Source of the DNA: Arachnia propionica
Lineage (GTDB): Bacteria; Actinomycetota; Actinomycetes; Propionibacteriales; Propionibacteriaceae
Direction: 5' to 3'
Assembly (NCBI RefSeq): GCF_003859805.1
Contig: NZ_RQZG01000012.1
Coordinates: 1-64,000, forward strand
DNA: 64,000 nucleotides
Position numbers and translations under genes: made by a program. The notes under the pieces were generated by a model that did no database searches, was not told the origin of the DNA, and saw nothing but the letters and a program-made list of their open reading frames with translations. The first letter of the stretch is position 1; each line of letters opens with the position of its first letter. This document shows positions 23,867-57,837 of this stretch, piece after piece.

Positions 23867-24069
23867 TTTGCCTGCCTTGTGATGGTTTCGCCTGTCCTGG
23901 GGCGGAAATGCCTGTCTTGTTCGGGTTTACCTGCCTTATTGGACAGGCAATTCGATTTTGGGCAGGCAAACCGTGCGCAAGACAGGCGAAACGGTCTCAG
24001 GACAGGTAAACCCGAACAAGGCAGGCGAAAGCGGAACAAGACAGGCGAACCGTGCTCAAGACAGGCGAA
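23867..24069. repeat. 20-bp-period iteron array 1 (4 forward + 7 reverse units)
   Basis: Eleven 13-bp units. Forward type (consensus TTYGCCTGYCYTG) begin at 23867, 23887, 23907 and 23926. Reverse type (CARGRCAGGCRAA) begin at about 23938, 23958, 23978, 23998, 24017, 24037 and 24057. Starts are 19-20 bp apart, with variable 6-7 bp between cores. The order makes a large imperfect dyad. It fills the space between convergent genes; reading frames through it are spurious. Related arrays lie at 33241-33447 and 42842-42945. Confidence 0.85.
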
Positions 24070-33240: not shown

Positions 33241-33447
33241 TTCGCCTGTCCTGCTGTGGGCTCGCCGGTCCTGATGTCGGCTCGCCTGTCCTGCTCCGGT
33301 TCGTTTTCGCCTGTCTTGTTCGGGTTTGCCTGTCCTGGTGTCGGTTCGCCTGCCTTAAATCGAATTGCCTGTCTAATAAGGCAGGCAAACCCGAACAAGA
33401 CAGGCAATTGATGATCAAGGCAGGCGAACCGGAACAAGGCAGGCGAA
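33241..33447. repeat. 20-bp-period iteron array 2 (7 forward + 4 reverse units)
   Basis: Forward units begin at 33241, 33261, 33281, 33306, 33325, 33345 and 33364. Reverse units begin at about 33377, 33396, 33416 and 33435. Spacing is 19-20 bp except for one 5-bp insertion (33281 to 33306). The arrangement is the mirror image of array 1 (4+7) and totals 11 units again. The dyad centre is GCCTGTCTAATAAGGCAGGC. It lies in the 548-bp gap between the MFS start and the metallopeptidase end; the rest of that gap shows nothing clear. Confidence 0.85.
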
Positions 33448-33576
33448 CCGGGCCGCCTCGGATTCCAGGAAACCCACCCCGGGATGGGGCGAGGCGGTGG
33501 TGCGGGAAGGCCGGTGTGCGACTCGGGAACATCCACGCTCGGGGCCTGCAGAGGTCCCCAGCGGGTCGTCGTTGTC

Positions 33577-42655: not shown

Positions 42656-42738
42656 GCGCGAGTGGCGGAATGGCAGACGCGCCGGCTTCAGGTGCCGGTG
42701 CCCGCAAGGGCGTGGAGGTTCAACTCCTCTCTCGCGCA
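42656..42738 (+). tRNA. tRNA-Leu (anticodon CAG)
   Basis: An 83-nt class II tRNA. Acceptor arm GCGCGAG/CTCGCGC with discriminator A. D-arm GGCGGAATGGCAGACGC, anticodon stem CCGGC/GCCGG around TTCAGGT (anticodon CAG, codon CUG), a long variable arm CCCGCAAGGGC, and a T-arm with GGTTCAACTC. CCA is not encoded. A terminator hairpin follows. Confidence 0.95.
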
Positions 42739-42742
42739 CGAT

Positions 42743-42771: not shown

Positions 42772-42841
42772 CCATTTCCGGACGTCCAGCCCCACCACCG
42801 CAGGCCCAGTGCCTGTCACTCCCCCCGTCACGCCCCGTCGG

Positions 42842-42945
42842 TTCGCCTGTCCTGGATCGGGTTTGCCTGCCTTGTTCGGAATTGCCTGTCTTGTTGGGCA
42901 GGTAATTCCGAACAAGGCAGGCGAACCGGCCGCAAGGCAGGCGAA
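42842..42945. repeat. 20-bp-period iteron array 3 (3 forward + 3 reverse units) upstream of Wadjet
   Basis: Forward units begin at 42842, 42862 and 42881; reverse units at about 42894, 42913 and 42933. The two halves pair almost perfectly: F2 plus its spacer (TTTGCCTGCCTTGTTCGGAA) is the complement of R2 with one mismatch. It ends about 28 bp before the candidate -10 of the jet operon. Confidence 0.85.
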
Positions 42946-42972
42946 CCGCGGGGTGGGTCGGTGGGAAGGCGG

Positions 42973-43006: not shown

Positions 43007-44434
43007 GTGGACCAGCCCGCCGTCGAGCTGCTGCGTGACCAGAGTGCGGCCTGGCGGCTGCTGCGAGCCACGAACAGCCCCCTCATCCTGTCCTTCCTCG
43101 GTGGTTTCTTCGTCACCGTCAACCGCGGCGCCACCCCCGCCCACATCGTCGCCTCGGCCCTGGAGGACCATCTGTTCGCCCTGGTCGACGGCGACGAACG
43201 CTACCCGCGCCCACCCACCCAGTACCTGGAGGAGTGGGCCGCACCCGAGGCCGGGTACCTCCGCCGCTTCTACCCACCCGGCCACGACGAGATCCACTAC
43301 GAGGTCACCCCCGCCTTCGAGAAGGCCTATGCCTGGGTCGACTCCCTCCAGGCCCGTTCCTTCGTCGGCACCGAGTCACGCCTCCACACCGTCGTCGACC
43401 TGCTCCGCCAGATCGTCCACGGCACCGATGCCGACCCCACCTCCCGCCTGGCCGAGCTGCAGCGCCGCCGTGACCTCATCGACGCCGAGATCGCCGCCGT
43501 CGAGGCCGGGCAACCCCCCATCCTCGACGACGTCAAGGTCCGTGACCGCTACCAGCAGGTCGCCACCACCGCCCGCGCCCTGCTCAGCGACTTCCGGGAG
43601 GTCGAGGAGAACTTCCGGCACCTCGACCGGGCCGCCCGCGAGAAGATCGCCGGCTGGGACGGCACCAAGGGGGACCTGCTGGCCGAACTCGTCGGCTCCC
43701 GCAGCGACATCACGGGCTCCGACCAGGGCCGCAGCTTCCAGGCCTTCCACGACTTCCTGCTGTCGGGCAGCCAGCAGGAGGAACTGAGCACGCTGCTCTC
43801 CCGCGCCACCGACCTGCTGGGACCCGACGCCGACCAGCGGCTGCGCACCATCCACCACGACTGGGCCGAGGCCGCCGAACGCACCCAGCACACCGTCCGA
43901 CAACTGTCCGAACAGCTCCGGCGGTTCCTCGACGACCAGGTGTGGCTGGAGAACCGGCGTGTGCTGGACCTGGTGCGCGGCATCGAGGCCGCCGCCCTCC
44001 AGGTCCGCGACGCACCCCCTGAGTGGGGCATCGAGATCGACCTGCCCGGCCTGCCCATCGTGCTGCCCTTCGAACGTCCCCTCTACGAACCCCCGACGAC
44101 GGCGGACGTGGTCAGCCTCATCCCGCCCGTGGGGGACGACCCCCTCGACGACGAGGCCCTGTTCACGCAGCGTTTCGTCAACGCCGCCCGTCTGGCCGAG
44201 CTGGTGCGGGGCGTCCTGCCGCCGAGGTCCTCGATGCAGCTGGAGGACATCGTGGACCTGTACCCGCTGGAGCAGGGAGCCGCCGAGATCGTCGGCTACC
44301 TCAGCATCAGCGATGACGAACTGAGCGTGGAACTCGACGACGGCGACGTCACTGTGCTGGACTACCCCGACGAGCACGACGAGCAACGATGGCGTCGGGC
44401 ACGACTACCGAAGGTGACGGTGAGACGACGATGA
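43007..44434 (+). CDS. jetA: Wadjet subunit JetA (DUF3375)
   Basis: Protein of 475 residues. GTG start set by AAGGAGG six bases upstream. It has the DUF3375 opening AVELLRDQSAAWRLLRATNS, then PLILSFLGGFF, an N-terminal winged-helix region with ALEDHLFALVDG and LRRFYPPGHDEIHYEVTPAF, and long helices carrying ERTQHTVRQLSEQLRRFLDD. JetA is the kleisin-like subunit that bridges the JetC heads and binds JetB (a MukF-like role). In type I Wadjet the complex extrudes DNA loops, senses small circular plasmids and cleaves them. First gene of the four-gene operon; its stop overlaps the jetB start (ATGA). Confidence 0.95.
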   Translation: MDQPAVELLRDQSAAWRLLRATNSPLILSFLGGFFVTVNRGATPAHIVASALEDHLFALVDGDERYPRPPTQYLEEWAAPEAGYLRRFYPPGHDEIHYEVTPAFEKAYAWVDSLQARSFVGTESRLHTVVDLLRQIVHGTDADPTSRLAELQRRRDLIDAEIAAVEAGQPPILDDVKVRDRYQQVATTARALLSDFREVEENFRHLDRAAREKIAGWDGTKGDLLAELVGSRSDITGSDQGRSFQAFHDFLLSGSQQEELSTLLSRATDLLGPDADQRLRTIHHDWAEAAERTQHTVRQLSEQLRRFLDDQVWLENRRVLDLVRGIEAAALQVRDAPPEWGIEIDLPGLPIVLPFERPLYEPPTTADVVSLIPPVGDDPLDDEALFTQRFVNAARLAELVRGVLPPRSSMQLEDIVDLYPLEQGAAEIVGYLSISDDELSVELDDGDVTVLDYPDEHDEQRWRRARLPKVTVRRR

Positions 44435-44997
44435 GTGTGGAACCCGAGGTGAGCCGGGCCATCATCAAACTGATGCAGGGAGTGGTCTACCGGGAGGTCG
44501 ACGAGGACACCTGGGGCACCCTGGAGCGCGCCTCCGGGGCCATCCGCGACCACTTCGCCGACATCGGGGTGGACGTGGTGGTCGCCGACGCCGAGGGCTT
44601 CGCCTACCTGCGTTCCCGCTCCGACGACGGCGACGACGAGCTGCCGCGACTGGTGCGTCGCCGGGCCCTGACCTACAACGTCTCCCTGCTGCTGGTGCTG
44701 CTGCGCAAACGCCTCGCCGAGTTCGAGTCCCTGTCCACCGATTCCAAACTGGTGCTCACCGGGGAACAGATCGTCGACCTGCTGCGCACCTTCCAGGCCG
44801 AGACCTCCAACGAGGCACGCATCGCCGATCAGGCCGAACGCACCGTCAAGCAGGTGGCGGACCTCGGGTTCCTGCGCCCGCTGCGTGGGGAGCCGGACCA
44901 CTGGGAGGTGCAGCGGGTGCTCAAGGCATTCGTGGATGCGGAGACGATGGCTGATTTCGAGGCGAAACTGCGGCAGTACGCGGGGGTGGAGTCATGA
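44431..44997 (+). CDS. jetB: Wadjet subunit JetB (DUF4194)
   Basis: Protein of 188 residues. It reads SRAIIKLMQGVVYREVDEDT, WGTLERASGAIRDHFADIGV, an Asp/Glu-rich turn, then RRRALTYNVSLLLVLLRKRL and a final wing with LGFLRPLRGEPDHWEVQRVL. These are the tandem winged helices of DUF4194/MukE-like KITE proteins. JetB is the KITE subunit that dimerises on the JetA kleisin. The ATG at 44431 is in a four-base overlap with jetA; an upstream in-frame ATG at 44389 would duplicate the end of JetA. Its stop overlaps the jetC start. Confidence 0.93.
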   Translation: MSVEPEVSRAIIKLMQGVVYREVDEDTWGTLERASGAIRDHFADIGVDVVVADAEGFAYLRSRSDDGDDELPRLVRRRALTYNVSLLLVLLRKRLAEFESLSTDSKLVLTGEQIVDLLRTFQAETSNEARIADQAERTVKQVADLGFLRPLRGEPDHWEVQRVLKAFVDAETMADFEAKLRQYAGVES

Positions 44998-47900
44998 GCG
45001 ACGCCCTGTTCCCCACCGTCGAGCTCGGATCCGCAGGACGTGCCGGGTACCGGCTCAAGCACCTGGAGGTGTTCAACTGGGGCACCTTCCACGACCGGGT
45101 GTGGCGGCTGACCCCCGACGGCGAGACGGCGTTGCTCACCGGGGACATCGGCTCCGGCAAGTCCACCCTGGTCGATGCCGTCACCACCCTGCTCATGCCC
45201 GCCGGGAGGATCGCCTACAACAAGGCCGCCGGGGCCGATGCACGGGAACGCACCCTGCGTTCCTACGTGGAGGGGCACTACAAGTCGGAGCGGGTGGAGT
45301 CCTCCGGGCGTTCCCGTGCCGTCGGGTTGCGCACCGACGGCACCACCTACTCCGTGATCGTCGGGGTGTTCAGCAACGACGGTTTCGACGAGACCATCTC
45401 GTTGGCCCAGGTGTTCCAGCAGCGTGACCCGAAGGGGCAGCCGTACCGGTTCTTCGTCACCGCCACCAGGGCGTTGGACGTCCACACCGACTTCGGGCAC
45501 TTCGGCACCGACCTGAAGGCCCTGCGGAAACGGCTGCGCTCCGACCCGGAGGTCACCCTCTTCGACGACTACCCGAAGTACGCGTCGTCACTGCGACGGC
45601 TGCTCGGGATCCGCTCCCAGCAGGCCCTGGAGCTGTTCCACCAGACGGTGTCGATGAAATCGGTGGGGAACCTCAACGAGTTCGTCCGGGACCACATGCT
45701 GGAGCCGGCGGACGCCTCGGGTCGGGTGGCGGGCATCCTCAGCCATTTCGACGACCTCACCAAGGCCCACGACGCGGTCAGACGGGCCCGGGAGCAGCTC
45801 GAGGTCCTGACCCCGCTGGTGGCCACCAGTCAACGCTACGACACGGCGCTGAGCAGCCGTGAGGCCGGTCAGGCGCAGCTGGAGGCGGTTCGGCTGTTCG
45901 TCGCCGAGCATCGCGCCCAGCTGCTCGCCGACGAGGTGGCGGCCTGCGTCGTCGAGGAGACCCGGCTGGAGTCGCAGTGCGATGTGGAGCGGCAGCGTCG
46001 CAAGGCCCTGGAGCGGGAACGGGAGACCCTCATCGAGGAGCGCAGTGAGGCGGGCGGCAACCGTATCGGGGAGCTGGAGCGTCTCGCCCGCGACGCCCGC
46101 ACCGAGGCCGGGACCAGACTGCGATGGCGGGGCGCATTCGACGACGCCGTCGGCAAGGCCGGCCTGGCGCCGGTCGGTGACGCCGACGCCTTCGCGGCCC
46201 TGCTCGCGACCACCGGTGAGCTCACCGCCGGGCTGGTGAGTGCCCGGCAGCAGGTCGAGGCCCGGCGTGGTGACGCGGAGGCCCGGGTGCGTGACCACCG
46301 TCGTGGCCTGGCGGAGGTGGCGCGGGAGGTCGAGAGCCTGGAACAGCGCAGCAGCAACCTCCCCGCTGAGCAGGTGATGCTCCGTGAGCTGCTCTGCGAC
46401 GACCTGGGCTTGACCACGGACCAGCTGCCGTTCGCCGGGGAGCTGCTGGACGTGTCACAGGAGCACGGCCAGTGGCGGGGAGCTGCGGAGCGGGTGCTGC
46501 GTGGTTTCGCGCTGTCGCTGCTGGTGCCCGACGAGCACTACCGTGTGGTGTCGGCGTGGGTGAACGAGCGTCGTCTGGAGCTGCCGGGGCGGGACGGTCG
46601 ACGGGTCGGAGCCCGGCTCACCTACGAGCGGGTCTCGACGCGACGCATCCGCAGCCAGGCGGAGCCGTCGCCGTGGCTGCGGTTGGCGGACTGCCTGGAG
46701 GTCCGTGACGGACCGTTCGCGGCGTACCTCGAGCAGGAGCTGCAGCGGCGTGCCGACCATCGCTGCGCCGAGGACCTGGCCGAGTTCCGTGACTTCCACG
46801 TGGCCAGGGCCGTCACCCGCCAGGGGCAGGTGAGGAACGGGGACCGGCACGTCAAGGACGACCGGCACCGTGCCGATGATCCACGACGGTGGGTGCTCGG
46901 CTGGGGCAATGAACGCAAACTGCAGGTGCTGCAGCAGGAGGTCGCGGAACTGCAGCAGGCGGTGCGGCACGCGGAGCAGGAGGTGTCGGCGGCCCGGGGT
47001 GAGCTGGAGCAGATCCAGGGGCAGTTGGACGCCCTGAACCGGCTGGGGGAGTACCGTTCCTGGACCGATCTGGACCACGAGGAGGCGACGGCCCGTGCCC
47101 AGGCGGCCGAGACCGAACGGGCACGGCTTGAGGGGGCGTCGTCGCGGCTGGTGGAGATCACCCGTCAGCTGGAGGCCAACTCCGGGCGCATCGCGAGGAC
47201 CGATGCGGTGATCGAGGAACTCACCAAGAAGGTGGCCCGGTTGGAGGGGGAGCGGGTCAAGGCGGAGCAGGCGAGGGCGGCTGACGACGCCCGCGTCGCC
47301 GCGCACCCCGATCCGGAGCGGGCCAGGGCCAGCTACCCGGCGCTCATCACGCAGCTCGGGACGATGCCCGCCACCTCGGCGGCATGGGAACCGGCCAGGG
47401 AGCAGCTGGAGGACGACCTCGGGCGTCGGATCGAACGGCTGCACCGGGAGCTCGGCGGGTTGGGGCAGGGTCTGCTCGCCGGGATGAACGAGGTGCTGCG
47501 GCGCTGGCCGGAGCTGAGGGTGGACCTGGACCCGGCCGTCGAGGCGCGGGACGAGTTCGTCGCGCTGCACCGGCAGGTCAGCGACGACGACCTGCCCCGT
47601 TTCGAGGAGGAGTTCAAGCAGCAACTCAACACGAACACGGTGCGGGAGTTGGCGCAGTTCAACGCGTGGTTGCGGCGGCAGGCCGAGCAGATCGACGACC
47701 GGGTGGCGCACATCAACGAGGCGCTCGGGGCCATCGACTACAACCCGGGTCGCTATGTGCGGCTGGAGAAGCAGAACACCAACAACAGCGACGTGATCGC
47801 CTTCCGGGAGGACCTGCGGCGTGCCGTCGATCACGCCCTGTCGGGGGACCACTACTCGGAGCAGCGGTTCCTGGACGTCAAGGCCATCATCGAGCGGTTC

Positions 47901-48386
47901 CGGGGTCGGGAGGGGCATGCCGAGGCGGATCGGGCGTGGACCCGTCGCGTCACGGATGTGCGGAACTGGTTCGTGTTCTCCGCCTCGGAGCGGGATCACG
48001 ACACCGACGAGGAGTGGGAGCACTACTCCGACTCCGACGGCAAGTCCGGCGGTCAGAAGGAGAAGTTGGCCTACACCATCCTGGCGGCGTCGCTGGCCTA
48101 CCAGTTCGGGCTGGAGTGGGGGGTGGAGCGCTCCCGGGACTTCCGGTTCGCCGTGATCGACGAGGCCTTCGGGCGGGGCTCGGACGCCTCGACGCGGTAC
48201 GCGTTGACGTTGTTCGCGAAGCTGGGGTTGCAGTTGCTCATCATCACGCCGTTGCAGAAGGTGCAGGTCATCGAGCCGTACGTGCGGGCCATCGGGTACG
48301 TGGACAACCCGGGTGGCACCAATTCGCGGCTGCACACCATGACCATCGAGGAGTACCGGAGCAGACGAGGCAGGCGTGAGCGATGA
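44994..48386 (+). CDS. jetC: Wadjet SMC-like ATPase JetC
   Basis: Protein of 1130 residues. Walker A is LLTGDIGSGKSTLVDA at about 48-63, in the N-terminal half-domain. Long coiled-coil arms enclose a hinge region near 420-600. The C-terminal half-domain has the ABC signature DSDGKSGGQKEKLAYTILAA at about 1018 and Walker B FRFAVIDEAFGRGSD at about 1050. This is the MukB/COG4913-type layout of JetC, the motor that extrudes DNA with ATP. All nucleotide-site motifs are present, so the protein should be active. ATGA overlaps join it to jetB and jetD. Confidence 0.96.
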   Translation: MSDALFPTVELGSAGRAGYRLKHLEVFNWGTFHDRVWRLTPDGETALLTGDIGSGKSTLVDAVTTLLMPAGRIAYNKAAGADARERTLRSYVEGHYKSERVESSGRSRAVGLRTDGTTYSVIVGVFSNDGFDETISLAQVFQQRDPKGQPYRFFVTATRALDVHTDFGHFGTDLKALRKRLRSDPEVTLFDDYPKYASSLRRLLGIRSQQALELFHQTVSMKSVGNLNEFVRDHMLEPADASGRVAGILSHFDDLTKAHDAVRRAREQLEVLTPLVATSQRYDTALSSREAGQAQLEAVRLFVAEHRAQLLADEVAACVVEETRLESQCDVERQRRKALERERETLIEERSEAGGNRIGELERLARDARTEAGTRLRWRGAFDDAVGKAGLAPVGDADAFAALLATTGELTAGLVSARQQVEARRGDAEARVRDHRRGLAEVAREVESLEQRSSNLPAEQVMLRELLCDDLGLTTDQLPFAGELLDVSQEHGQWRGAAERVLRGFALSLLVPDEHYRVVSAWVNERRLELPGRDGRRVGARLTYERVSTRRIRSQAEPSPWLRLADCLEVRDGPFAAYLEQELQRRADHRCAEDLAEFRDFHVARAVTRQGQVRNGDRHVKDDRHRADDPRRWVLGWGNERKLQVLQQEVAELQQAVRHAEQEVSAARGELEQIQGQLDALNRLGEYRSWTDLDHEEATARAQAAETERARLEGASSRLVEITRQLEANSGRIARTDAVIEELTKKVARLEGERVKAEQARAADDARVAAHPDPERARASYPALITQLGTMPATSAAWEPAREQLEDDLGRRIERLHRELGGLGQGLLAGMNEVLRRWPELRVDLDPAVEARDEFVALHRQVSDDDLPRFEEEFKQQLNTNTVRELAQFNAWLRRQAEQIDDRVAHINEALGAIDYNPGRYVRLEKQNTNNSDVIAFREDLRRAVDHALSGDHYSEQRFLDVKAIIERFRGREGHAEADRAWTRRVTDVRNWFVFSASERDHDTDEEWEHYSDSDGKSGGQKEKLAYTILAASLAYQFGLEWGVERSRDFRFAVIDEAFGRGSDASTRYALTLFAKLGLQLLIITPLQKVQVIEPYVRAIGYVDNPGGTNSRLHTMTIEEYRSRRGRRER

Positions 48387-49519
48387 GGACGGCATGGTCC
48401 GGGCCGGAGGCGGTCCGGGTGGTGGTGCAGCGTCGCTGGAACAGCGGTGAGCTGTTGCGTGCCCACGCCGCCGGGGAGGAGTTGGTGCCGATCCGGGTGC
48501 CGTTGAAGGGGCCGCGTGCGGCGGAGGTCGCGGACCAGTTGGCGCGGATCGAGGCGTGGATCAGCAGGCTGGAGAAGGCCTCCGGGGGTGGGGACTGTTT
48601 CGAACTGGTGTGGAAGCAGGTCGGTGGGCGGCGGTTCCAGCGGGAGCGGCTGCCCAGCCACGCCGTCGTCACGAGCCTGGAGCAGGCGTGGCGGCTGCTG
48701 GGGTCGCGGGCGGAGGTGGACCGGTTCGACGAGGTGCTGGCGCTGGTGGCGGGGGTCCCGACGGTGCGGGCGTGGGTGCTGGAGCATCCGCTGCGGGCGT
48801 TGCGGATCGACGACTGGCGGGCGCTGCTGGCCACCTTCACCTGGCTGGACGGGCACCGGGGATCGGGACGGCACCTGCGGGAGATGAGTGCGCCGGGGGT
48901 GGACACGAAGTTCGCGGAACGGCACCGGGGTGTGTTGGCGGAGCTGCTGCGGGTGCGGGGCTCAGCGACGGGTTTCCTCGACGATCTGGGGCTGGGGCGT
49001 CGCCCGGAGCTGGTGCGGTTGCGGCTCGGGTCGGGGCTGGGGTGGCTCGGGCTCAGTGAGGTGGCGGTGCGGGCCGAGGAGCTGGCCCGGCTGGAGTTGA
49101 CGCCGTCGCGGGCCCTCATCGTCGAGAACGAGGTGACGTATCTGAGTGTGCCGGTTCCGGATGACGGGGTGGTGCTGTGGGGACGCGGTTTCGACGTGGA
49201 CCGGGTGGGGCGGTTGCCGTGGCTGGCGGGTGTGGAGGTGACGTACTGGGGTGACATCGACACGCATGGTTTTGCGATCCTGAACCGGTTGCGTGGCTGG
49301 CTGCCCGAGGTGCGTTCGGTGCTGATGGATCGGGAGACGCTGCTGGAGCACCGTGACCAGTGGGTGCGTGAGGGACGCCCGACGGTGGCGTCGCTGTCCA
49401 GGCTGAGCCCTCAGGAGGGGTTGCTGTACCGCGAGCTGGTGGAGGACCGGTTGGGGAGCAGGGTCCGGTTGGAGCAGGAGTTGATCTGCTGGCCCTGGGC
49501 CCTGGAGCGGCTGGGCTGA
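48383..49519 (+). CDS. jetD: Wadjet nuclease subunit JetD (DUF3322/DUF2220, TOPRIM)
   Basis: Protein of 378 residues. The N-terminal DUF3322 half begins with WSGPEAVRVVVQRRWNSGEL. The C-terminal half is DUF2220, a TOPRIM-like nuclease, with RALIVENEVTYLSVPVPDDG (the catalytic Glu strand) and EVTYWGDIDTHGFAILNRLR (the D-x-D metal site). JetD cleaves the plasmid DNA trapped by the JetABC loop extruder; both metal-site motifs are intact. It is the last gene of the operon and a strong terminator follows at 49537. Confidence 0.95.
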   Translation: MRTAWSGPEAVRVVVQRRWNSGELLRAHAAGEELVPIRVPLKGPRAAEVADQLARIEAWISRLEKASGGGDCFELVWKQVGGRRFQRERLPSHAVVTSLEQAWRLLGSRAEVDRFDEVLALVAGVPTVRAWVLEHPLRALRIDDWRALLATFTWLDGHRGSGRHLREMSAPGVDTKFAERHRGVLAELLRVRGSATGFLDDLGLGRRPELVRLRLGSGLGWLGLSEVAVRAEELARLELTPSRALIVENEVTYLSVPVPDDGVVLWGRGFDVDRVGRLPWLAGVEVTYWGDIDTHGFAILNRLRGWLPEVRSVLMDRETLLEHRDQWVREGRPTVASLSRLSPQEGLLYRELVEDRLGSRVRLEQELICWPWALERLG

Positions 49520-49536: not shown

Positions 49537-49578
49537 GGTGGTTGGCAACAGTCGCTTTGGCGACTGTTGCCAACCACC
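49537..49578. terminator. Terminator of the jet operon, perfect 19-bp stem
   Basis: GGTGGTTGGCAACAGTCGC and its exact complement around TTTG, between convergent jetD and the lipoprotein gene. Confidence 0.8.
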
Positions 49579-49583
49579 TTGAG

Positions 49584-50963
49584 TCATGACCATCCGATGG
49601 CCGGGTAGAACAATGTCTCGTTGGCCAGTCCCCAGGACGTGACCGCGAGGGCCTCCGCATTCCCCAGCAGAGGTAGTTCGGCGATGATCGTGCCGGAGCC
49701 CAGGTTCCGCAGGTGGAGGGTCGCGTCATCGCTCAGGGTGTCCTTGTCGTTGGGGCCTGAGTACAGGACATTGCCGAAGATGGCCCTGGCCCGAGGAGGA
49801 CGCTCATCCAGACCGGCCGTGACCCTGAAGTCGGGCGCTGGGGCTCCCACCCGCCACACCCACAACGAGCCTCCCTTCTCGTGGTCCGCGGATCCGATCA
49901 GTGCCCGGGACTCCGACCAGATCTGTGGGGGCCTGAAACTGACCGCGCCATGGCTGGTGATGTCCTGCAGATCAATGGTGGCGTCATGACGCAACGACGT
50001 GACGTGGACCGCCTCGTGGTTCCACTGCTCGGTGTCGTCGTCCACCAGATCCGCGAAGTACAGCCATTCACCCGCCACGAACAGCGGCATCCAGGCACCC
50101 ACCTCGACCACGCTTCCCGTCAGCGGAGCCACCACGACCCGGGTGCCGTCCTGGCGGGTCAGCACGATGGCCTCGCCGAGGACGTGGTTCATCACCGGGG
50201 TGGCGTCCGCGACGACGTCGTGGGCATCGAACCGCACGGAGAGATCGCTCGTGACGAGCCGGACCGCCACGTGATCCCCGGGGGCCTTGAGCGTCGTGGT
50301 CCCGACCAGCACCAGTTCTCGTCCCGTCTCGTCGAGGCTCAGGGTCAGGGCGCGGATGGCGTGCGGGTCGATCCCCTCCCGGATCTTCACGGTGGCCGCG
50401 ACGGCGCCGTCGCCCAGCCCCACCTTGACCACGTGCAGGGCGTACCGGGACGCTGCTTCCTGCACCCCCACCACGAGGTAGGCGTGTTGCTCGTCCAGCA
50501 CCGCCCGACCCGCGGTGAGTGGCCGACCGCGTCCGTCCTCCTCGACGGGGGCCCCGGGCGACGGTGTGACCAGGGCGTCGAGCTCCACCTTCTCGGTGGC
50601 GAAGGTGCCGGAGTCATCGAGCTGGAGGATCCAGGTGCTCGGCCCCTTGACGTTGACGACCGCGGGAAACCATGCCTCCTCCTGCCCCCTGGGGTCCTTC
50701 TCCCCTCGCAGCACTGCACCGCACAGCCAGTGGTGCCTCACGGCGGTGATGCGGGTGGCCACGGGAGCGGTTGGCCACGTCGGCGCATGTCGGAACGAGG
50801 TGGGGACGACGAAGGAGCCCGGCGGTTCCGGAGGCGGGGAGGTGGAGGCCGACGGTGCCGGTGGGATGTTGGGCGTGGGAACGGTCTCGGGAATGGCGGG
50901 GGTGTCGGCGCAGGCCGACAGGGCGGAGACGGCCCCCACCCAGAGGAAGTGACGACGACGCAT
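49584..50963 (-). CDS. Tat-type lipoprotein, paralogue 1 (propeller-like)
   Basis: Protein of 459 residues. The signal peptide MRRRHFLWVGAVSALSAC has a twin-arginine motif (RRRHFL) and a lipobox (LSAC), so it is a predicted Tat-exported lipoprotein. After a Pro/Ser/Thr linker it carries repeated short strands (WILQLDDSGTF, GGSLWVWRVGAPAPDFRVTA, LHLRNLGSGTIIAELPLLGN). It ends in WGLANETLFYPAIGW, which matches the end of the neighbouring gene. GAGGAG precedes the ATG. It begins nine bases after the end of its paralogue, with which it forms one unit. Function unknown; the fold may be a beta propeller. Confidence 0.75.
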   Translation of the reverse strand: MRRRHFLWVGAVSALSACADTPAIPETVPTPNIPPAPSASTSPPPEPPGSFVVPTSFRHAPTWPTAPVATRITAVRHHWLCGAVLRGEKDPRGQEEAWFPAVVNVKGPSTWILQLDDSGTFATEKVELDALVTPSPGAPVEEDGRGRPLTAGRAVLDEQHAYLVVGVQEAASRYALHVVKVGLGDGAVAATVKIREGIDPHAIRALTLSLDETGRELVLVGTTTLKAPGDHVAVRLVTSDLSVRFDAHDVVADATPVMNHVLGEAIVLTRQDGTRVVVAPLTGSVVEVGAWMPLFVAGEWLYFADLVDDDTEQWNHEAVHVTSLRHDATIDLQDITSHGAVSFRPPQIWSESRALIGSADHEKGGSLWVWRVGAPAPDFRVTAGLDERPPRARAIFGNVLYSGPNDKDTLSDDATLHLRNLGSGTIIAELPLLGNAEALAVTSWGLANETLFYPAIGWS

Positions 50964-50971
50964 GATGCTCC

Positions 50972-52384
50972 TCAGGAAGGACTGGACGTGGGGGACGGCG
51001 TGGCTGCCCCCGGTAGCCACTGCGTGGCGCGGTAGAACCGTGGGCCCTTGATCGTGTCCGCGTCGAGGACGCCCCAGGCAGTGACGTGCACGTCGTTCAA
51101 GGGAGCATCGGCGGACCACTCGAGCGGGAGTTCCTGATCGCTGCCCAGCGGTTGGATGACCAGGAGGTTCTTCGTCTTCTGCTGTGCATCCGTCTCCCGG
51201 TGCCAGAGGTAGAGTGCTCCTTGGTGGAAGCCCGCGGACAGCAGGTCCCCGTACGACTTCAGGGTGACGGTCCGGGTGGGGGTGTCGGAGTCCGGCTGAT
51301 GGATGGTCAGCGGCATTCCACTGAGGTCCCTGACCGACACCAGCGGATCGATGAACACGCTCGGCCAGGAGGGGTACGGCAAGGACGTGCCGCCCAGGTG
51401 GGCTGGGAGGGACTTCTCCTGCCCGGTGAGCACGTTTCGCATCACATGGGTCTCCCCGCCGCGGGTGCCGGTGGTCTCATACGACCAGCCACCCATCACC
51501 CGACCCACCCTGCGGTCCGGCTTCTGAAGGGTCTCACCGTTGGTCAGGAAGACCACGAGTCGTGCCTGATTCGCTCCCGTGTGCACCGCGATGGCCTGGC
51601 CCAGAGGAGTGACGATCGGGTCCCGCTGGTGTCGCAGGAGTGAATGGGCGTCGAACTCGACCCCCAACGTCCCGGCACTGACCCGCAGCCCCAGCCAGTC
51701 GGCCCCGTCGGTCAGCCTGTTGTCGTGGGCGACGAGCAGTGCGGTGCGGTCCTCGTTGAAGGACAGCTGCAGTTCCTCGTGGAGTTTCTCGCCGGTCCTG
51801 CAACGCTCGCCCAGGGTCACCGACCCGACCACGGCCCCGTCGGCCAGGTGGATCTTGAGCAGCACCAGGGCAGAGCCCTTCTCGAGGACCTCGGTGATGT
51901 CCTGGTCAGGCCTCTCGAGGGGGACCACACCCATCGTCACGTACGCGTGGGTGTCGTCCATGACAGCGGGTCCGGGGAACAGCACGGTACGGGCGGTTCC
52001 CGGGGAATCCCCGTGCCCGTCGGGGCTCTGCGGGGTCACCTTGACGGTGGTCCAGGAGCCGTCCTCGGTGAGGGAGACGGCCCGCGTCGTCGGTCCTGTC
52101 ACATCGACGACCACCGGGGTCCACCCATCGCGGAAGATGTGCCTCAGCTCCGGAATGACCATGGCTGCCGTGAGGTACTGGTTCCTGATCCCGGTCATGA
52201 CCACGTCCGCCTTGGCCCCGGGCCATGCGGATTTCTTCTCGAATCCCCAGGGGAGACGGCCAGCGGGGTCCGAGGAGCCCCACCCGAGCCACGAGCAGCC
52301 GCTGAGGCCTGTCAGGGCCGTCCCGGCGAGGGCCAGGGTCGTGAGGAACCTCCGGCGGGGGAGCAGGGGCCGTGCCGTCGTCAT
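50972..52384 (-). CDS. Tat-type lipoprotein, paralogue 2
   Basis: Protein of 470 residues. The signal peptide contains RRRFLTTLALAG and the lipobox LSGC, a clear Tat lipoprotein. The core has the same order of features as the downstream gene: LPGPAVMDDTHAYVTMGVVP aligned with VLDEQHAYLVVGVQE, LQLSFNEDRTALLVAHDNRL with TLSLDETGRELVLVG, and the final WGVLDADTIKGPRFYRATQW with WGLANETLFYPAIGW. The two therefore arose by duplication. Folding through Tat suggests assembly in the cytoplasm before export. The ligand is unknown. Confidence 0.75.
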   Translation of the reverse strand: MTTARPLLPRRRFLTTLALAGTALTGLSGCSWLGWGSSDPAGRLPWGFEKKSAWPGAKADVVMTGIRNQYLTAAMVIPELRHIFRDGWTPVVVDVTGPTTRAVSLTEDGSWTTVKVTPQSPDGHGDSPGTARTVLFPGPAVMDDTHAYVTMGVVPLERPDQDITEVLEKGSALVLLKIHLADGAVVGSVTLGERCRTGEKLHEELQLSFNEDRTALLVAHDNRLTDGADWLGLRVSAGTLGVEFDAHSLLRHQRDPIVTPLGQAIAVHTGANQARLVVFLTNGETLQKPDRRVGRVMGGWSYETTGTRGGETHVMRNVLTGQEKSLPAHLGGTSLPYPSWPSVFIDPLVSVRDLSGMPLTIHQPDSDTPTRTVTLKSYGDLLSAGFHQGALYLWHRETDAQQKTKNLLVIQPLGSDQELPLEWSADAPLNDVHVTAWGVLDADTIKGPRFYRATQWLPGAATPSPTSSPS

Positions 52385-52605
52385 CGTCGCCCTTGCCTGT
52401 TTGCCTGGAAGAAGGCGCCGTGTCCCCGGGAGGTGATCGCGACAGGACCGGTCGGCGGGTGCTCGGTCTCGGGCAGGACCCCGGGCTCGGTGTGGGTGAG
52501 GGTGTGGAAGGTGCGACGGTGCATGAGACCCCTGTTCTCGGGCCCGACGTCGGTCGTGGGCCTTTCAGGCATTCTAGGGAACCAGGAGGTCACCTCGACG
52601 CCCGG

Positions 52606-53450
52606 TCACCATCGCCATGTCTCCGCGGAGAGGCAGTGGCCGTTGAGGGCGATGTTCGTGGAGTTCTCGAGGGGTGGCGGCTGGTTCGCGGAGCAGCCCC
52701 CATGGACGGCGGCACTCCACGGGACGGGGCGTTCCTGCGCCGCCCAGAGGGCCTTCGTGGTCCTCTCCTCGGGTGCCCGCAGCGCGATCCTCCCGTCAGT
52801 GTCGTGCTCCTTCAGGACCAGGTGGGGGTCCTCAGGTGCTCCCACGCGATGCAGCGAGTTCCCCCGTGATGTCCTCGGGAACCGTCGCAGGATCGATCAC
52901 CTCGCCGGTGAGGACGTGACGCCCGTGACACCCCGCCCCCATCAACAGGCCGGAACCGTCGGCAGTGAGGCTGAGGGTGGGGCTGACGGCCTGGAACCCC
53001 CCGATGCTCCGACCGACCTCGACGTGTGCCACGACAGTGACATCGCTGAGCCGTACCGTGACGAGGTGGGCAAGGCCCCGGACCTGCTCCGGCTTCGTGC
53101 CGGTGGGCATCCCTGCCACCACGAGGAGGAAGGCGTGGGTGTCGTCGAGCAGGGCGCCGGTGGGTGCCAGCGCCTCGCCCATGAAGGGGTGGTGCTTCTC
53201 CGGGCCCCAGCGGCCCTGTGCACCTGGTCGAGTTGTGTGAACAGGTCGGGGAGATCAGTTCTCCCCATCCGGGAACCGCCAGCCGGATCCTTGATCAGGA
53301 GCCATGTCGTCGGTTCATCGAGGTCGACCAGCGCGGGGCCACGACGTCCTGTATCCGGCTGCTGCCCAGCGGCATCCAGCCGATGCCGCCACACGGACGG
53401 TCCCGTCGAGGGGCGTTGCTGGTGGGGTCGGCGCGGACCTCCGGTCACAG
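52606..53450 (-). pseudogene. Decayed third paralogue of the Tat lipoprotein family
   Basis: Reading 53450 towards 52606 on the minus strand, two frames together cover the family core. One gives GPALVDLDEPTTWLLIKDPA (compare GPSTWILQL in paralogue 1). After a frameshift near 53180 the other gives GALLDDTHAFLLVVAGM and AVSPTLSLTADGSGLLMGAG (compare AVLDEQHAYLVVGVQE and TLSLDETGRELVLVG). No intact signal peptide or continuous frame remains. Together with the intact genes this shows a three-member tandem family with one member lost. The 220 bases between this and paralogue 2 show no remnant I can place. Confidence 0.7.
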
Positions 53451-57583: not shown

Positions 57584-57593
57584 GTCGTCCTCC

Positions 57594-57729
57594 CAGCTGG
57601 TCGAGCCGCGAAGCTGAGCGATCGTGTCGAGGCCTCCGGGACCCGGTGCCGGAACTCAGGTGGAGCGGAGACCTCGCCGGGTCTCGGCACGGTTTCCTTC
57701 GCAGGTTCGCGGCCCGGCTCGACCAGCGG
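57594..57729. repeat. CGCTGGTCGAG dispersed repeat, inverted pair (copies C1 and C2)
   Basis: The left copy starts AGCTGGTCGAGCCGCGAAGC (57594-57638). The right copy is the same family on the other strand (57668-57729), reading CGCTGGTCGAGCCGGGCC from 57729 leftwards. Together they bracket about 30 bp and resemble a small inverted-repeat element. Apart from this, the terminator and the operators, the gap 57536-57988 shows nothing. Confidence 0.6.
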
Positions 57730-57837
57730 CGGGAAGGTGCCGTGGCTGGTCGTGGGTCGGCTTCGTGGGGGCGATGGTGGGTGCGGCAGGTGGGGTGCCG
57801 GGTGGGCGACCGATGGGTCGGGCAAAGGTCTCGAATC

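What the first reader, a model, noticed from the sequence alone, without database searches (positions are those of the whole stretch)
43007..49519. Complete type I Wadjet (JetABCD) anti-plasmid system
Four genes with ATGA overlaps encode DUF3375 (JetA), DUF4194 (JetB), an SMC-like ATPase with intact Walker A, signature and Walker B motifs (JetC), and a DUF3322/DUF2220 TOPRIM nuclease with an intact D-I-D metal site (JetD). Gene order and domains define type I. All catalytic residues visible are present, so it should be functional. It is next to a tRNA-Leu gene, a common integration point.
Basis: partly seen in the sequence, partly recalled or inferred. Interest (0 to 1): 0.62.

Follow-up and report, generated by a model that had tools for sequence, protein, structure and literature searches.

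The report
Ordinary type I Wadjet anti-plasmid system
This is a complete, apparently intact four-gene bacterial defence system (type I Wadjet) that probably loops through small circular DNA and cuts it; it is a normal member of a well-known family, found in an actinobacterium beside a leucine tRNA gene.

Summary
Four open genes lie at exactly 43007-49519 on the + strand, with three ATGA start/stop overlaps: jetA (475 aa), jetB (188 aa, start 44431), jetC (1130 aa) and jetD (378 aa). All four hit the type I PADLOC models (E 4e-88 or better) and the matching Pfam domains; JetA, JetC and JetD also match solved Wadjet structures. Walker A, signature, Walker B, the Toprim Glu, D-I-D and the C-terminal LEQE are present. 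It is a normal type I Wadjet, inferred to extrude and cleave small circular plasmids.

The tRNA-Leu argument is weak: no copy of the tRNA 3' end elsewhere in the window, no integrase nearby, and Wadjet-free relatives have a different downstream flank. Horizontal acquisition is supported by distribution instead: JetC is 62-63% identical to other actinobacterial families, but 54-55% to congeners.

Side findings: a sister species keeps only an intact orphan jetD at this site; the same genome carries a second, JetD-less JetABC (MksBEF-like); the proposed MksG catalytic tyrosine is Phe here; JetB lacks the N-terminal extension reported to contact JetD; a large modular palindromic repeat between tRNA-Leu and jetA recurs at about 35 loci.

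The parts
42656..42739 (+). tRNA-Leu (CAG), chromosomal neighbour upstream of the operon; not part of the system
   Evidence: ARAGORN, Rfam RF00005
42834..42953 (.). copy of a genome-wide modular palindromic repeat between tRNA-Leu and jetA (arms 55 nt, 82% complementary)
   Evidence: RNA fold z-score -13.3
43007..44434 (+). jetA, DUF3375 kleisin subunit, 475 aa, GTG start with AGGAGG upstream
   Evidence: PADLOC JetA1 E 4.8e-183, Pfam E 3.6e-134, PDB JetA E 8.6e-25
44431..44997 (+). jetB, DUF4194/MksE-like KITE subunit, 188 aa; ATGA overlap with jetA
   Evidence: PADLOC JetB1 E 3.7e-88, Pfam, start
44994..48386 (+). jetC, SMC/MukB-like ATPase, 1130 aa; Walker A 45141-45167, signature 48045-48065, Walker B 48147-48170
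   Evidence: PADLOC JetC1 E 0, PDB JetC E 1.3e-58, motifs
48383..49519 (+). jetD, DUF3322 + Toprim nuclease, 378 aa; VENE 49121-49132, DID 49253-49261, RLEQE 49466-49480
   Evidence: PADLOC JetD1 E 9.2e-124, Pfam, PDB MksG/JetD, alignment
49537..49578 (+). perfect 19-bp inverted repeat with 4-nt loop shortly after the jetD stop; possible transcription terminator
   Evidence: the repeat finder I10; not picked up as a T-run terminator

Best explanation
A complete type I Wadjet (JetABCD, also called MksBEFG/EptABCD) operon. By homology, JetC with JetA and JetB forms a dimer-of-dimers SMC motor that loads on DNA and extrudes it; on a small closed circle extrusion finishes, the motors meet and JetD, a Toprim endonuclease, is activated and cuts, so incoming plasmids are lost. 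Shown here: intact genes, domains, motor and nuclease residues, the same operon in distant relatives. Inferred from characterised homologues: complex assembly, loop extrusion, circle sensing, cleavage, plasmid restriction in this host. The operon was probably acquired horizontally and has sat beside tRNA-Leu since before the split from the sister species G010.
For: Type I PADLOC models for all four genes; Pfam domains; PDB matches to JetA, JetC, JetD and MksG; ATGA-coupled order A-B-C-D; ATPase and Toprim residues present and conserved among aligned JetD relatives; the same jetABCD order in loci from several actinobacterial and proteobacterial families; JetC tree places it among JetD-bearing actinobacterial Wadjets. 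Mechanism from PMC10586767 and PMC10123090.
Against: No activity data. The match to characterised proteins is remote (phmmer E 1e-58 for JetC, 3e-17 for JetD). JetB lacks the N-terminal extension in which an IFDR motif was reported to contact JetD (PMC10586767). The MksG Tyr258 position is Phe. No promoter-like site was found, although the scan covers only the sigma-70 consensus.
Confidence: 0.95

Rival explanations
1. A chromosomal condensin of the MksBEF kind, with JetD incidental, that organises the chromosome rather than restricting plasmids.
For: JetABC is homologous to MukBEF/MksBEF (MksE PF21980 E 1.7e-16); JetD-less relatives exist, one in this same genome.
Against: jetD is present, translationally coupled and has intact catalytic residues; the closest JetC relatives all travel with jetD; patchy presence in the genus (this JetC clade in 3 of 37 genomes) fits defence better than housekeeping. 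The JetD-less second complex is the better condensin candidate.
Confidence: 0.04
2. An intact-looking but inactive or decaying Wadjet, like the remnant in the sister species.
For: G010 has no jetABC at the same site and its jetD has 15 lineage-specific changes at 119 outgroup-invariant columns; JetB here lacks the N-terminal extension known from characterised systems.
Against: Only 3 such changes on the window's own lineage; all four frames open, all motifs present; the short JetB is shared by the whole actinobacterial clade, so it is ancestral and not decay.
Confidence: 0.06
3. The operon is cargo of an integrative element that inserted into tRNA-Leu (compatible with Wadjet function, but a different origin).
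For: A relative (G022) does have a tyrosine integrase directly downstream of the same tRNA-Leu; tRNA genes are common attachment sites (general knowledge).
Against: No second copy of the tRNA 3' end in the window, no integrase among the neighbours scanned, no tRNA in 8 of 9 fetched JetABCD loci of the wider family, and Wadjet-free G004/G006 have an antiporter there instead of the window's right flank.
Confidence: 0.08

Closest known systems
Type I Wadjet JetABCD of E. coli GF4-3 and P. aeruginosa PA14 (PDB 8as8/8q72, 8dk1-8dk3, 7til)
   Same: Same four subunits, order, domains, ATPase motifs and Toprim acidic residues
   Different: Remote in sequence; JetB 188 aa here against 249-250 aa, lacking the N-terminal extension
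Corynebacterium glutamicum MksBEFG (MksG PDB 8b7f)
   Same: Actinobacterial JetD/MksG relative; metal-binding E236/D279 positions conserved
   Different: Tyr258, the proposed catalytic tyrosine of MksG, is Phe270 in this JetD and Phe in the close relatives aligned
JetABCD operons of Amycolatopsis antarctica, Jiangella anatolica, Nocardioides agariphilus, Mycolicibacter acidiphilus
   Same: Same operon, JetC 62-63% identical, JetA 64-68%, the same short JetB and the same JetC N-terminal start (S/T-D/E-G/A-L-F)
   Different: Different chromosomal sites, no tRNA found within the fetched loci
MksBEF condensins without MksG
   Same: Homologous JetA/B/C subunits
   Different: This system has JetD; the JetD-less type is the second complex on contig C76 of the same genome

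Membership tests
Wadjet type I | jetA-jetB-jetC-jetD in one operon, in that order | tested here: met
Wadjet type I | JetA DUF3375, JetB DUF4194 | tested here: met
Wadjet type I | JetC SMC/MukB-like ATPase with Walker A, signature, Walker B | tested here: met
Wadjet type I | JetD with DUF3322 + Toprim (JetD_C) and metal-binding Glu and DxD | tested here: met
Wadjet type I | Profiles of type I rather than II or III are the best hits | tested here: met
   best hits all type 1; JetC2 and JetD3 appear only at E 3e-5 or weaker
Wadjet type I | ATP-dependent cleavage of small circular DNA, plasmid restriction | not testable with these tools
   needs a bench assay
tRNA-integrated genomic island | Duplicated tRNA 3' end (att) flanking the insert | tested here: not met
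   last 22 nt of tRNA-Leu found once in the window at up to 4 mismatches
tRNA-integrated genomic island | Integrase gene in the insert | tested here: not met
   no integrase among the neighbours scanned
tRNA-integrated genomic island | Empty site in relatives | tested here: not met
   left flank conserved but right flank differs in Wadjet-free relatives
MksBEF condensin (JetD-less) | No nuclease subunit in the operon | tested here: not met
   jetD present

The most novel reading that the evidence does not exclude
In this actinobacterial Wadjet clade JetB lacks the N-terminal extension that contacts JetD in the E. coli-type complex, and a conserved short N-terminal motif of JetC (M-[ST]-[DE]-[AG]-L-F-[SP], e.g. 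MSDALFPT at 44994-45017), separated from the ATPase core by a variable linker, has taken over recruitment or activation of JetD. The motif is seen in every clade member examined; the role is a guess.
Probability: 0.12. Interest if true: 0.4.

Novelty: new member of a known kind. Interest (0 to 1): 0.15.

Why it matters
It is a routine defence operon, useful mainly as a practical warning that the host may resist plasmid transformation. The comparison adds modest points: congeners show likely stages of Wadjet loss (orphan full-length jetD in G010, truncated jetD in G021), and a JetD-less JetABC is kept beside a complete one, which bears on how MksBEF-type condensins could arise from JetABCD. A natural Phe at the proposed MksG catalytic Tyr argues against a tyrosine nucleophile being general in actinobacterial JetD.

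Tried and rejected
Empty-site test at tRNA-Leu: no clean empty site; G004/G006 carry a Na/H antiporter there and G000/G010 carry that gene elsewhere. Search for att duplication: negative. Idea that an N-terminal LF motif marks JetD binding: weakened because the JetD-less second complex has SLFEGD in JetB too. RAYT/Y1 transposase as mobiliser of the palindromic repeat: none in the genome. A first motif scan failed on a too-strict pattern and was redone. Structure prediction was not run: sequence matches to solved structures already settle the folds. A literature search for the IFDR motif found only the review.

Full report
What is there. Four overlapping genes on the + strand at 43007-49519 encode JetA, JetB, JetC and JetD. 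The three junctions are ATGA overlaps, jetA has AGGAGG before its GTG start, and no frame is interrupted. The longest jetB ORF begins at 44389, but the ATGA at 44431 and the start of profile homology (residue 15 of the long form) make 44431 the better start.

What it is. PADLOC, Pfam and PDB sequence searches agree. Best PADLOC hits are JetA1 4.8e-183, JetB1 3.7e-88, JetC1 0 and JetD1 9.2e-124. Pfam gives DUF3375, DUF4194/MksE, AAA_29 with SbcC_Walker_B, and DUF3322 with JetD_C. JetC matches two solved JetC proteins at 1e-58 and 3e-57, JetA at 9e-25; JetD matches MksG at 1e-23 and JetD at 3e-17 and 3e-16. JetB itself did not reach the PDB threshold; a related JetB from the same genome did.

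Active sites. JetC has Walker A GDIGSGKST, signature SGGQKEK and Walker B FAVIDEAF. JetD has the Toprim Glu in VENE, a DID pair and the LEQE glutamates; in the alignment of 13 JetD proteins the first Glu, both Asp and both C-terminal Glu are kept. In C. glutamicum MksG, E236 and D279 bind the metal and Y258 was proposed as nucleophile, with residual activity in Y258A and two C-terminal glutamates as alternatives (PMC10123090). Counting along the alignment from E236, Y258 falls on the last residue of G-x-G-F here, JetD F270. Phe also occupies it in seven other close relatives, while L026, L028, L029 and L030 have Tyr and the G010 orphan has Leu. So Tyr is not a general feature of actinobacterial JetD.

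JetB. Characterised JetB is 249-250 aa and its domain starts after roughly 35 residues; the review PMC10586767 reports an IFDR motif at its N terminus that contacts JetD. JetB here starts straight at the domain (188 aa), as in all close relatives. The clade's JetC proteins instead share a short start such as MSDALFPT, MTDALFST, MSDGLFSA, MNEGLFSA. A transfer of the JetD contact from JetB to JetC is possible but untested, and a similar LF motif in a JetD-less complex weakens it.

Origin. Among 37 genomes of the genus searched (own plus 36), JetC of this clade occurs in three: G000, G001 and G017. Own JetC is 62-63% identical to proteins of Amycolatopsis, Jiangella, Nocardioides and Mycolicibacter but 54-55% to G001 and G017. 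A tree places it in this multi-family clade, with G001/G017 as a separate pair, though the inner order is not resolved. Horizontal acquisition is the natural reading. The order is likely Propionibacteriales (inference from genome sizes of the related families; not tested).

The tRNA-Leu site. The sister genome G010 has the same left flank and tRNA-Leu; jetD (72% aa, 383 aa, intact frame) begins about 150 bp after the tRNA, preceded by only about 45 bp of the jetC end, and no jetABC of this clade was found in that genome. Synteny resumes beyond window 53581; in between lie propanediol-utilisation-like genes (aldehyde dehydrogenase, cobalamin adenosyltransferase) in G010 and paralogous lipoprotein-like genes in the window. 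The simplest reading is ancestral presence and loss of jetABC in G010. A caveat: dS for jetD (0.70, NG86) is twice that of two nearby genes (0.33), so replacement by a divergent copy is not excluded. The orphan keeps Glu, DID and LEQE but changed 15 of 119 outgroup-invariant positions against 3 on the window's lineage, consistent with relaxed constraint. Wadjet-free G004 and G006 have a Na/H antiporter beside the tRNA, so there is no simple empty site; the tRNA 3' end is not duplicated in the window. G022 has an integrase at this tRNA, so the gene can serve as an attachment site, but nothing shows that it did so for Wadjet.

Second complex. Contig C76 of the same genome encodes JetA-, JetB- and JetC-like proteins (508, 262, 1133 aa) with type I PADLOC hits and no jetD beside them; the only jetD match in the genome is that of the window. 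It is conserved at 79-82% with the same MFS and ArsA-like neighbours in G010 and at 73-82% in G024. A relative in another family of the order (L016) does have a jetD-like stretch next to it, so loss of JetD is plausible. It is likely an MksBEF-type chromosomal condensin (inference; PMC10586767 proposes that MksBEF arose by loss of JetD).

Palindromic repeat. Between tRNA-Leu and jetA lies a 120-bp imperfect palindrome built of about 20-bp units containing GCCTGYCYTG. It folds at -109 kcal/mol against -55 for shuffles. By my count, about 35 separate loci of the genome carry copies or parts; G024 has many, G002, G004, G010 and G030 only fragments. No Y1 transposase is present and no Rfam family matches. 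It is not part of Wadjet; it may insulate jetA from tRNA transcription (guess).

Verdict. Ordinary, well-preserved type I Wadjet; new member of a known kind.

Noticed in passing
window 42834-42953; also 23887-24069 and 33276-33456; about 35 loci in the genome: Modular palindromic interspersed repeat made of ~20-bp units with GCCTGYCYTG, forming very stable hairpins; abundant in G000 and G024, fragments in G002, G004, G010; no Y1/RAYT transposase in the genome.
   Followed up: partly
G000 contig C76 (L035:7885-13544, - strand): Second JetABC-like operon without jetD, conserved with its neighbours in sister genomes; likely MksBEF-type condensin.
   Followed up: partly
G010 C34:30670-31797 (L088); G021 (L110:6503-7357): Orphan jetD genes: a full-length intact one directly after tRNA-Leu in the sister species, and a truncated one in another congener.
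   Followed up: partly
window 49584-53182: Tandem paralogous lipoprotein-like genes with no Pfam match; a further cluster of six copies on contig C14 of the same genome, and copies in G002, G004, G010, G018.
   Followed up: no
window 57593-57740: Another palindromic stretch, unlike the one by jetA, with dozens of partial matches across sister genome G010: a second interspersed repeat family.
   Followed up: no
JetD residue 270 (window 49190-49192): Phe at the position of MksG Tyr258, the proposed catalytic tyrosine, in this clade of JetD.
   Followed up: partly
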